Positions 30,741 to 39,714 of a DNA stretch of 64,000 nt are shown in pieces. The notes under the pieces are model-generated. The model did not search any database and had not been told where the DNA came from. It saw only the letters and a program-made list of their open reading frames with translations. Source of the DNA: Dillenia suffruticosa (Eukaryota; Streptophyta; Magnoliopsida; Dilleniales; Dilleniaceae); the NCBI GenBank assembly GCA_033439265.1, contig JAVTVX010000027.1:6649001-6713000 (forward strand), written 5' to 3'. How positions within the stretch are numbered: the stretch's first letter is position 1; each line of letters starts with the position of its first letter. The position numbers were made by a program, and so were the translations under genes.

Positions 30741-31720
30741 CGAATGGTTAGTTATGCCTTTTGGTTTAAAGAATGCGCCAAGTATTTTTCAAAGGAAGAT
30801 GGATAGTATATTTAATCAATTTCATTTTGTTTTTGTATATATAGATGAAATTCTAATAGCAAGTCAATCACTCAATGAACATTATTCTCATTTAGATATT
30901 GTTCTTAATAAATGTTTAGAACATGGAATAATTCTTAGCAAGAAGAAGATAGAGTTTTGTAAGTCATATATTGATTTTTTAGGACATAAAATAGGGAATG
31001 GAAGTTTAGAATTATAACCTCACATTAGTCAGAAGATTTTAGCATTCCCAGATAAAATAGAAACAACTAAAGAATTGCAGAAGTTTTTAGGATTAGTTAA
31101 TTATGTTAGAATGTATATTAAGAATTTATGACCACTTAGCAAAAGTCTTTATTCAAAAACTAGCAAGACAGGTCAAAAATATTTCAATAGCGAATATGTT
31201 AAAATAGTTCAGCAAATGAAAGAATTAGTGAAGAGTTTACCAAAGTTAAGATTACCTTTAGATTCCGAATATAAGATAGTTATTGTAGATTCATCAGAAT
31301 CAGGATGGGGAGCAGAATTGAAAGTAAAAGATAATAAATACAACCCCAAAAATACTAAAGTTTTATGTAGATATGGAAGTAGAGTTTTTGTACAGAAAAA
31401 TTTGTCATCTTTAGATTACGAAATCTTAGGAATAATTAGTGCATTGAATGCTTTTTGCTTATATTTAGCTAATGAATTCACTCTTCGTACAGATTGTGAA
31501 GCAATAATCAAATTCTATAAATTAAAAAATGAAAAAAGTCTCAGTAGCAAGCGATAGATACATTTTGTAAGTATTATACAAGGTAAATATTGAGCACATC
31601 AAGGAAAAAGATAACACAATAGTAGACTATTTAAGTAGAATTGTACAGGAAAAAATACAAATGTGTGAATACACTAATCATGATTTTGATTTTGCAGATA
31701 CTGAAGGTAGCAATACAATA
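30741..31720 (+). pseudogene. Pararetroviral RT (3' part) and RNase H, left arm, broken
   Basis: Starts within the RT palm at the WLVMPFGLKNAP block. The catalytic box reads YIDE (codon 30847-30849), where the family has two acidic Asp residues in a row. In-frame stops lie at 31015-31017 and 31129-31131, and both are also present in the right arm. RNase H follows (IVDSSESGWGAEL; LSSLDYEIL). It carries a third stop at about 31555-31557 and a short deletion just beyond it that the right arm lacks. It cannot encode an active polymerase. Confidence 0.9.
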
Positions 31721-31811
31721 TAGTGGAATTCTATAGCCAATAATATAATTTGAATTCTGTAACAATACAAGATAGAGAAGTTTTAATAAGTGGAAGACTA
31801 ACAAGATATTA

Positions 31812-32681
31812 ATGCAGATGGAACAGCAAGGACAGCCACAGCCAATGATCCAACCAATGATGCAACAAGCCTATCAGGTCTATCATTTCGGCCCAATCAA
31901 ACTTTTCCCGGTCCACCCATCAAAGGCCTTTAATTTCAAGAAACCATACCCACTCGATCCAGTTCAAAAGGTTCTTATAGACAATTTTTGGTGTAGCAAG
32001 TCCAGTAATAGCCAAGAATGTCAGAAACTCTTTTATAATTGCATCATAGCTTTAGCAGATCATTTGAATTTTTTAAATAACCAAGTTTCAAACTACTACC
32101 AAGCCCAATTCCAACGACACAATCCTCAACCACAACAAAGTTTCGAACCAGTCACTCCAGCAGCATTTGCAACCCTTAAGGTAGAAAATCAATGTCTTAG
32201 GAATGAAGTTAATTCAATTAAAGAAGATAATGATAGAATAGAAAAGGAATGTAATGAGTTAAGAGAAGCAAACATTAAAATGAGAGAGACATGGGAGCGA
32301 GAAATTCGAGAAAAGAAGAGAGAAATGTTTCAATTCGAATATATAGAAGAAATTTCTAAGGATACTGTAGGATTAATTAGGAAGAAAGTCGTAGAATTAA
32401 AAAAGAATGAATACTTAGACAAGCTATTAATTAGTCAGCATATAACAAGTAAAAGTAGACAATATCCTATAGCAGGATGCGTAGTTGTTACTGAAGAAAT
32501 TGAAGCAGACAATGGTTTAATACAAAGTCACGGATTCAATATAGCAAGGTATTGTTTGGATCTTGATTCATTCAATACGGAACAGGTTATCAATGGTTTA
32601 GCAATAACCCCTTTAAATTTGTTAGAAATGGGTTTACTTAGTGAAGTTATTTTCAAGTCCAGCTCAATTGAAGTATTTTAG
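31812..32681 (+). CDS. Unknown pararetroviral protein, 289 aa, coiled coil (left arm)
   Basis: An uninterrupted 289-codon frame 3' of RNase H. The N-terminal 20 residues are Q/M/P-rich. A conserved-looking block follows (HFGPIKLFPVHPSKAFNFKK), then a long charged region at about 125-170 rich in E, K, R and N with heptad-like spacing, probably a coiled coil. Its place after the polymerase is where caulimovirids keep accessory or inclusion-body proteins, but I recognise no domain and assign no function. The right arm copy is full length and differs at only two visible positions (C/R near residue 129, T/A near 218). Keeping both copies open, while the polymerase is broken, suggests recent origin. 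Confidence 0.75.
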   Translation: MQMEQQGQPQPMIQPMMQQAYQVYHFGPIKLFPVHPSKAFNFKKPYPLDPVQKVLIDNFWCSKSSNSQECQKLFYNCIIALADHLNFLNNQVSNYYQAQFQRHNPQPQQSFEPVTPAAFATLKVENQCLRNEVNSIKEDNDRIEKECNELREANIKMRETWEREIREKKREMFQFEYIEEISKDTVGLIRKKVVELKKNEYLDKLLISQHITSKSRQYPIAGCVVVTEEIEADNGLIQSHGFNIARYCLDLDSFNTEQVINGLAITPLNLLEMGLLSEVIFKSSSIEVF

Positions 32682-37297: not shown

Positions 37298-37410
37298 TAA
37301 TATCTTGTTAGTCTTCCACTTATTAAAACTTCTCTACATTATTGACTATGAAACTTCACTATCTTGTATTGCTACAGAATTCAAACTATATTATTGGCTA
37401 TAGAATTCCA

Positions 37411-38130
37411 CTATATTGTATTGCTACCTTCAGTATCTGCAAAATCAAAATCATGATTAGTGTATTCACACATTTGTATTTTTTTCTGTACAATTCTACT
37501 TAAATAGTCTGCTATTGTGTTATCTTTTCCCTTGATGTGCTCAATATTTACCTTGTATCCATTGCCTTGTATAATACTTACAAAATGTATCCATCGCTTG
37601 CTACTGAGACTTTTTTCATTTTTTAATTTATAGAATTTGACTATTGCTTCACAATCTGTACGAAGAGTGAATTCATTAGCTAAATATAAGCGAAAAGCAT
37701 TCAATGCACAAATTATTCCTAAGATTTCGTAATCTAAAGATGACAAATTTTTCTGTACAAAAACTCCACTTCCATATCTACATAAAACTTCAGTATTTTT
37801 GGGGCTGTATTTATTATCTTTTACTTTCAATTCTGCTCCCCATCCTGATTCTGATGAATCTACAATAACTATCTTATATTCGGAATCTAAAGGTAATCTT
37901 AACTTTGGTAAACTCTTCACTAATTCTTTCATTTGCTGAACTATTTTAACATATTCGCTATTGAAATATTTTTGACCTGTCTTGCTAGTTTTTGAATAAA
38001 GACTTTTGCTAAGTGGTCATAAATTCTTAATATACATTCTAACATAATTAACTAATCCTAAAAACTTCTGCAATTCTTTAGTTGTTTCTATTTTATCTGG
38101 GAATGCTAAAATCTTCTGACTAATGTGAGG
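37411..38130 (-). pseudogene. Pararetroviral RNase H segment, right arm
   Basis: Open for 173 codons from 37932 to 37411 and longer on its C-terminal side than the left-arm copy: SLDYEILGII..LRTDCEAIVKF..IEHIKGKDNTIADYLSR, the usual RNase H motifs including the final HIKGKDN..ADYLSR. The frame is continuous with the RT upstream except for two in-frame stops at 38131-38133 and 38017-38019, both shared with the left arm. Confidence 0.88.
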
Positions 38131-39714
38131 TTATAATTCTAAACTTCCATTCCCTATTTTATGTCCTAAAAAATCAATATATGACTTACAAAACTCTATC
38201 TTCTTCTTGCTAAGAATTATTCCATGTTCTAAACATTTATTAAGAACAATATCTAAATGAGAATAATGTTCATTGAGTGATTGACTTGCTATTAGAATAT
38301 TATCTATATATACAAAAACAAAATGAAATTGATTAAATATACTATCCATCTTCCTTTGAAAAATACTTGGCGCATTCTTTAAACCAAAAGGCATAACTAA
38401 CCATTCGTATAATCCAATAGGTGTTGTGAAAGATGTCCATTCTATGTTTTGTGGATGCATACGAATCTGCCAGTATCCTGATTTACAATCTAACTTGCTA
38501 AACACTTTACGTCCTTGTATCAAATGTAACAAATTATCCTTAGTTGGTATCTTATAACTATCTTCAATTGTATTATCATTCAGTCTTTTGTAATTGATGA
38601 CCATTCTTGCTTTCCCTCTACGAACTTCACTATGATTTCTAACCATAAATGCTGCACTTCTATGTTTACTCTTGCTTTCTCTAATTAACTTTAATTGCAT
38701 TAATTCCTTTATTTGAGATTCAAATTCTAACTTATCTTCACTATTGTATTCTAGTTCCTTAGTTCTAATCACTAGATCTTCATTAATTAAATCGAGTTTA
38801 GCTAACAATTTATTTTTACTCCAAAATTCTAATGGATTTTCTCCTATGAGTCTACACTCCTCTAACTTGCTAATTAATTTATGTAACTTAGGATGATTCA
38901 TATTATTCTTCTCTAAAGTAAACAAATATTCATTATTTATATCTTGATCGTCTAAAATTTCTAAGTTTATGATATTATATATTTCTATCTCTTGAAATGT
39001 ATCTACTTCTTGAGTGTCTTCAGTGATTTCTACATTGTCTAATTTATAATCGAAAATATCATCTAGATTTCGATTTGTTGGTATACAATTAAATTGTTTA
39101 CTTATCAATAAATGTTCTCTAGATATTCCAAAAAATCCTTCAAGACTAAGTATGAAATTTAAACCTATTATGAAATCATAAGCAATCTGCAAAACTAATA
39201 TCTGAGGTACATTATACCCTTGACTAATTCGTTTCTTGTTAACAAAATAAATCTTGCTATTTCTAAGAACCTTCGAGACTGTGACTGTATGCTGATCTAC
39301 TAAACTTATTTGAGCATTCGTACTGTATGTAATGTCTGATGGCTTAAGAAACTTGCTATTTATAATACTTTGACTAGCTCCTGAATCTATCAAAGCTTCT
39401 AATGCTATTTCTATTTTATTTTCTAACATTAATTGAACCTTGACTGTTAAAAGACTTGTATGAGAATGAGGTGCTAAATTGATTATTTCAACTACATTAT
39501 TTTCTTCAAATGATTCTTGGATAACTATTTCCTTATTCTTTCTATTCTTGGGTAAAGGTGGAAATTCTACATTCATTACTTCAATTTTTTTAATTTTATT
39601 TTTTAAAAGTTCAACTTCCAATTCTAAAATATGAACTCTGTGTACTAAATCTTGTGTATTTATTATACCTTTCTGTTTTTTATGAGATTGATAAAAAATA
39701 ATGTAATATGACAT
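38131..39714 (-). pseudogene. Pararetroviral aspartic protease and reverse transcriptase, right arm
   Basis: Taking the ATG at 39714 as start, the frame has a short coiled-coil-like N-terminus (HRVHILELEVELLKNKI), then a retropepsin with the active-site box ALIDSGASQS (Asp at about residue 110). Reverse transcriptase follows (SKHRSAAFMVRN; GKARMVINYKRLN; FSKLDCKSGYWQI; PFGLKNAPSIFQRKM). The catalytic box at about residues 469-472 reads YIDN (Asn codon 38299-38301) instead of ending in two Asp. With the stop at 38131 this makes a dead polymerase. The protease-RT-RNase H order without integrase is the Caulimoviridae signature; I cannot place the genus. Confidence 0.92.

What the first reader, a model, noticed from the sequence alone, without database searches (positions are those of the whole stretch)
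30741..38407. A 7.7-kb near-perfect inverted repeat of an endogenous pararetrovirus: a natural hairpin-RNA locus
Two viral arms of about 3.8 kb face each other across 23 bases, with about 98 percent identity. Each arm has a TATA promoter pointing to the centre, so either promoter, or the S25 promoter outside, would give RNA that folds on itself over kilobases. Long perfect hairpins are known Dicer-like substrates in plants. The locus could be a constitutive source of small RNAs against related viruses, and so a heritable antiviral element. The structure is seen; the silencing role is inferred.
Basis: partly seen in the sequence, partly recalled or inferred. Interest (0 to 1): 0.93.

Follow-up and report, generated by a model that had tools for sequence, protein, structure and literature searches.

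The report
Inverted viral fossil inside ribosomal gene
A dead plant-virus fragment sits in a ribosomal-protein gene as two nearly identical copies facing each other, a layout reported in tomato to yield virus-matching small RNAs, and in this genome inverted layouts recur among relatives of the same virus.

Summary
The inverted repeat is real: arms 30741-34555 and 34579-38407, 98.5% alike, across 23 bases. Corrections: viral sequence runs on to about 39691, so the insert is about 8.95 kb; the spacer is mostly viral; the insert lies inside a ribosomal-protein S25 gene whose last exon lost its splice acceptor. The TATA boxes lie about 0.9 kb from the centre, so viral promoters predict 0.9-kb stems; only S25 read-through would give kilobases. 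Both arms share two pol stops (absent in 4 of 4 other copies) and an ORF3 frameshift (absent in 2 of 2), so they most likely come from one defective template. Of 27 related loci 11 hold inverted pairs; two LTR-element controls gave 0 of 40 each. One palindrome is centred on the tRNA-Met primer site. RNA was not testable. Inverted endogenous caulimovirids making 22-nt siRNAs are published for tomato (Valli 2023, known here through a review). Verdict: new member of a known kind; structure sound, silencing plausible, antiviral role untested.

The parts
30741..34555 (+). left viral unit = left arm (C-terminal half of RT, RNase H, ORF3 in two pieces, promoter, leader)
   Evidence: the boundary with S25 lies at about 30737-30741
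34557..39691 (-). right viral unit, 5.1 kb (protease, RT, RNase H, ORF3 in two pieces, promoter, leader); inner end about 34557-34560
   Evidence: right end set by similarity to other copies ending at 39691
34579..38407 (-). right arm, the part of the right unit repeated in the left unit
34556..34578 (.). 23-base spacer; mostly aligns with viral leader continuing from the right unit
33637..33645 (+). TATA box of the left unit, pointing to the centre
35466..35474 (-). TATA box of the right unit, pointing to the centre, 907 bases from it
38131..39691 (-). viral part of the open pol frame (aspartic protease and RT), ending at a stop shared by both arms; outside the repeat from 38408 on
31776..33246 (+). 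left ORF3, one frame in the two relatives compared, split here by a frameshift (frames of 301 and 206 codons)
35863..37333 (-). right ORF3, split by the same frameshift
30635..30736 (-). last S25 exon without its 5' edge and splice acceptor
   Evidence: PF03297, E 1.3e-6; paralogue comparison
41317..41453 (-). third S25 exon, open, followed by a GT donor
   Evidence: PF03297, E 4.4e-19

Best explanation
A truncated, inactivated endogenous caulimovirid entered the last intron and exon of an S25 gene. It consists of two units of the same defective viral copy joined leader to leader, most likely made by inverted duplication of one template (fold-back copying or end-joining) before, during or after integration. 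If transcribed, from the viral promoters (about 0.9 kb stem) or by S25 read-through (3.8 kb stem), the RNA would fold into a long duplex, be cut by Dicer-like enzymes into 21-24-nt siRNAs, and chiefly silence the locus itself and its closest relatives. Shown: structure, shared lesions, gene disruption. Inferred: origin by duplication. Not shown: transcription, siRNAs, any antiviral effect.
For: Arms 98.5% alike, while the other copies found with the RNase H probe match it at 75-93%. Two in-frame pol stops are in both arms and in 0 of 4 other copies covering them; one ORF3 frameshift is in both arms, while ORF3 is a single frame in the two other copies compared, C8 minus unit and C10. The fold is almost wholly across the centre. 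S25 parts flank the insert on one strand. Inverted pairs recur in 11 of 27 related loci; in 6 of the 7 inverted loci that I read as sequence the arms are at least 95% alike. The siRNA step rests on tomato and soybean precedents told in PMC10377300.
Against: No RNA evidence of any kind was available. Viral promoters predict only short stems, and an AATAAA lies in the left leader about 180 bases before the junction, which could stop transcripts early. Differences between the arms show no excess at CG/CHG (11 of 262) over CHH (36 of 968), p = 0.72, so no footprint of small-RNA-guided methylation is visible; the Ty3 control LTR pair shows none either (p = 0.18) and the copia pair a weak one (p = 0.03), so the test is inconclusive. 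Perfect 21-mers cover only 0-17% of 7 related stretches. One of the 7 inverted loci, C8, holds two different viruses, so duplication is not the only route.
Confidence: 0.5

Rival explanations
1. Inert fossil: the inverted repeat is an integration by-product, transcriptionally silent, with no small-RNA role beyond ordinary silencing of repeats.
For: pol and ORF3 are broken in both arms; no methylation-type footprint, though the test is weak; inverted layouts are frequent in this lineage without need of selection.
Against: S25 exon 3 and the exon 2 frame are open and both viral TATA boxes remain; tomato inverted loci do make siRNAs (review).
Confidence: 0.35
2. Two independent viral genomes of one infection were joined leader to leader and integrated together.
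For: Locus C8 has two clearly different viruses in this same orientation (81% and 72% alike), so co-integration does happen; in the C10 array units meet at the primer site.
Against: Both arms share two pol stops and a frameshift not found in the other copies compared; two separate virions would have to carry all three.
Confidence: 0.12
3. Assembly artefact (fold-back read or mis-joined repeat).
For: Inverted repeats are a known assembly hazard (general knowledge); read data could not be examined.
Against: The arms differ at 55-56 sites and 6 indels, the units differ in length, and the two flanks are exons of one gene in the right order and strand.
Confidence: 0.03

Closest known systems
Inverted-repeat endogenous caulimovirids of tomato, called TSAs (Valli, Gonzalo-Magro and Sanchez 2023; paper not held; known here through PMC10377300 section 16, and passages of PMC12904150)
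   Same: Rearranged endogenous caulimovirid with inverted repeats that predict hairpin RNA.
   Different: There 22-nt siRNAs and trans-silencing were reported; here none could be measured. This copy is inside a ribosomal-protein gene, and inverted pairs occur in 11 of 27 loci of its lineage.
Soybean inverted repeats from caulimovirids and transposons feeding DCL2-dependent 22-nt siRNAs (Jia 2020, as told in PMC10377300)
   Same: Inverted repeats of caulimovirid origin.
   Different: No small-RNA data here; host species of this window unknown.
Tomato LycEPRV clones (Staginnus 2007, PMC1899175, passages read)
   Same: Truncated, inverted, partly duplicated endogenous pararetrovirus pieces; short RNAs of about 21 and 22-25 nt were seen there.
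   Different: No kilobase near-perfect arms are described in the passages that I saw.
Florendovirus (Geering 2014, PMC4241990, abstract and other passages read)
   Same: A second ORF of 45-58 kDa with no known homologue; some insertions within introns.
   Different: In the sister copy on C10 the movement-protein domain is in its own frame, not in one large polyprotein.

Membership tests
Endogenous caulimovirid | RT, RNase H and aspartic protease of caulimovirid type in nuclear DNA | tested here: met
   host S25 exons on both sides
Endogenous caulimovirid | movement protein and caulimovirid coat domain upstream of pol | tested here: met
   in the sister copy on C10 (PF01107 E 1.1e-15, PF22909 E 2.9e-27); the window copy is cut off before these genes
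Endogenous caulimovirid | tRNA-Met primer site after the leader (motif recalled) | tested here: met
   TGGTATCAGAGC in C10 copies; none in the window copy, which stops short of that point
Inverted-repeat siRNA locus of tomato type (TSA) | rearranged caulimovirid with inverted repeats | tested here: met
Inverted-repeat siRNA locus of tomato type (TSA) | transcription across the repeat | not testable with these tools
   TATA boxes and open S25 exons are present; no RNA data
Inverted-repeat siRNA locus of tomato type (TSA) | dense 22-nt siRNAs and trans-silencing of matching transcripts | not testable with these tools
   no small-RNA reads available
Florendovirus | second ORF of 45-58 kDa without homologues | tested here: inconclusive
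   ORF3 is one frame of 494 aa in C10 with no Pfam family above cut-off; a 289-aa piece of the right arm had 306 candidates, none at E <= 0.001; no named florendovirus was compared
Florendovirus | MP, coat, protease and RT in one 205-216 kDa polyprotein | tested here: not met
   C10 copy: MP domain in a frame of 226 codons, coat domain in another of 1357 codons that by position spans RT and RNase H; atypical florendoviruses with a split ORF1 exist
Genus Caulimovirus | RT groups with caulimoviruses | tested here: not met
   RT tree of 30 rows: four viruses that I take from recall to be caulimoviruses and a Lonicera protein form a supported group (100/99) without the window copy, whose own place is unresolved

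The most novel reading that the evidence does not exclude
In this virus lineage integration itself tends to make inverted dimers, because replication intermediates fold back or join at the leader/primer-site end, so the host gains hairpin loci against the invader as a by-product of its integration: a built-in route to heritable RNA immunity.
Probability: 0.2. Interest if true: 0.75.

Novelty: new member of a known kind. Interest (0 to 1): 0.45.

Why it matters
If the arms feed siRNAs, this plant carries a heritable hairpin against a virus lineage, paid for with one S25 copy. The wider point is testable now: near-identical inverted pairs recur across loci of one lineage and were not seen in two LTR controls, and one sits exactly on the primer site, which bears on how pararetroviral DNA is captured and how hairpin loci could arise without selection.

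Tried and rejected
Rejected: kilobase hairpins from the viral promoters (TATA positions); S25 as a mere neighbour; assembly artefact (see rivals). Inconclusive: methylation footprint; genus; poly(A) scan, left arm only. Nothing found: Rfam on the window, 0 matches at gathering threshold; viral contigs, 50 pattern matches, none a relative by tblastn; ORF3 piece, no homologue. Host not identified: a host-protein search listed 120 of 193 matches, mostly without names, and the named ones point to no one family. Literature searches. One search (pararetrovir, head-to-head, integrat, discontinuit together) gave 0 papers; I saw only the listings and noticed no title on primer-site inverted junctions, which is no proof of absence in print. 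One search (passages of PMC526188) gave nothing on inverted layouts.

Limits of the survey: the LTR controls scored only the best 40 of 324 and 40 of 816 candidates, so partners could be missed; one EPRV probe scored 40 of 41; the two loci added were chosen because their probe hits were inverted; 10 of the 27 loci gave a single hit and could not show a pair.

Full report
Observation. The repeat finder joins 30738-34555 with 34579-38410 in complementary segments. A global alignment of the arms gives 3731 identical of 3787 aligned positions (98.5%), 56 mismatches (46 transitions: 31 A/G and 15 C/T; 10 transversions; the last mismatch lies in the spacer) and 6 indel events of 2 to 25 bases.

Extent. 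The left unit covers only positions 1280-5111 of the right unit. Relatives elsewhere in the genome continue the match to 39691. The right unit keeps a protease and RT (PF00078 E 8e-34, PF21024 E 7.7e-7); the left has only the C-terminal part of RT. An alignment with five other stretches shows most of the 23-base spacer as leader sequence continuing from the right unit, so the junction is simple and lies at about 34556-34560.

Host. S25 exon 3 (41317-41453) and the last exon (30635-30736) match PF03297. Eight S25-like last exons, this one included, were found in the genome. The copy on C12, close in the exon and 75% alike over 269 columns of the 3' flank, has its acceptor and the first codons of the exon; in the window both are replaced by viral sequence. 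The insert therefore broke this S25 copy; several other copies keep the exon start.

Origin of the two arms. Two in-frame stops in the pol frame occur in both arms and in 0 of 4 other copies covering the sites (C8 twice, C31, C10 array); one more stop is in the left arm only. ORF3 is one frame in the C8 minus unit and in C10 but is broken by the same frameshift in both arms. Other copies match the RNase H probe at 75-93%; the two best, 91 and 93%, are fragments of under 200 bases. Inverted duplication of one defective copy is the simplest account; fold-back before integration and duplication in place cannot be told apart. With 1.5% divergence and recalled plant rates of about 2e-9 to 7e-9 per site and year, the duplication would be roughly 1 to 4 million years old, if the arms have not exchanged sequence since; this is a rough inference.

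Pattern of change. Of 55 differences, polarised by majority of up to five other copies, 33 fall on the left arm, 19 on the right, 3 are unresolved (33 against 19, p = 0.07). Taken on the window's minus strand, C to T outnumbers G to A 24 to 7 (counts, p = 0.003). This is the S25 coding strand, and transcription-linked deamination is one possible cause; the test was chosen after seeing the data, and an excess confined to the left arm fits about as well.

Hairpin. The 1796 bases 33670-35465 fold at -1301 kcal/mol, two mononucleotide shuffles at -327 and -337. The TATA boxes at 33637 and 35474 point inward; starts about 30 bases downstream (inferred) give stems of about 0.9 kb, after which the transcript is antisense to the opposite unit. 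Only a transcript of the minus strand from S25 would contain the right unit in sense and then the left in antisense, over 3.8 kb.

Recurrence. Four viral probes group into 27 loci; 11 have same-probe hits in opposite orientation within 20 kb, 11 of the 17 loci with more than one hit. Probes from a Ty3 and a copia-like element of the window gave 0 of 40 loci each, with the limits stated under Tried and rejected. In sequence: C15 is a 4615-base palindrome at 98%; C4 has arms of at least 7.2 kb at 95%; C31 has four inverted pairs of 229 to 619 bases at 98 to 99.6%; C10 near 18.17 Mb has 1719 bases at 100%, only partly shown to be viral; C8 holds two different viruses, 81% and 72% alike, in the window's orientation. 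In the C10 array at 18.35-18.46 Mb, arms of 1096 bases at 99.9% flank an 11-base spacer inside the tRNA-Met primer site, and a second, offset pair spans 3837 bases at 99.97%, cut by the end of the stretch read; the 23-base junction occurs exactly twice in the genome, both there. The window's centre lies some 370 bases short of the equivalent point (estimated).

Reach in trans. Perfect 21-mers of the arms cover 17% of a C31 stretch, 12% of a C10 stretch near 18.17 Mb, 5% and 3% of the C8 units, 2% of a C10 array unit, 0.6% of C4 and 0% of C15; none occurs in 27 kb of neighbouring DNA. Any siRNAs would act mostly in cis and on near relatives.

Known or new. The review PMC10377300 (sections 12 and 16 read, passages elsewhere) reports tomato endogenous caulimovirids with inverted repeats, 22-nt siRNAs and trans-silencing, and tandem arrays and multicopy rearrangements as frequent.

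Verdict. Structure firm; origin by inverted duplication likely; siRNA source plausible and untested; antiviral role speculative.

Noticed in passing
G000:C10:18354950-18455328 (L016-L026): A 100-kb array of 11 nearly identical copies of a related virus in mixed orientation, with a palindrome centred on the primer site; possible strong siRNA source or assembly problem.
   Followed up: partly
G000:C4:17738001-17752923 (L036, L037): Inverted repeat with arms of at least 7.2 kb at 95% around a 435-base spacer, larger than the one in the window.
   Followed up: partly
window 30741-38407: Strand bias of substitutions: C to T on the minus strand 24 against 7 (post hoc).
   Followed up: partly
window 31776-33246 and 35863-37333: The ORF3 protein had no homologue in the protein search and no Pfam match above cut-off.
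   Followed up: partly
window 52175-62106 and 43501-50422: Ty3-type element with LTRs 91% alike, and a second LTR element with repeats 83% alike and a tRNA-Met-like primer site at 43914.
   Followed up: partly
window 4569-4974 and 63357-63624: Tandem duplications of about 201 bases (96%) and 134 bases (100%).
   Followed up: no
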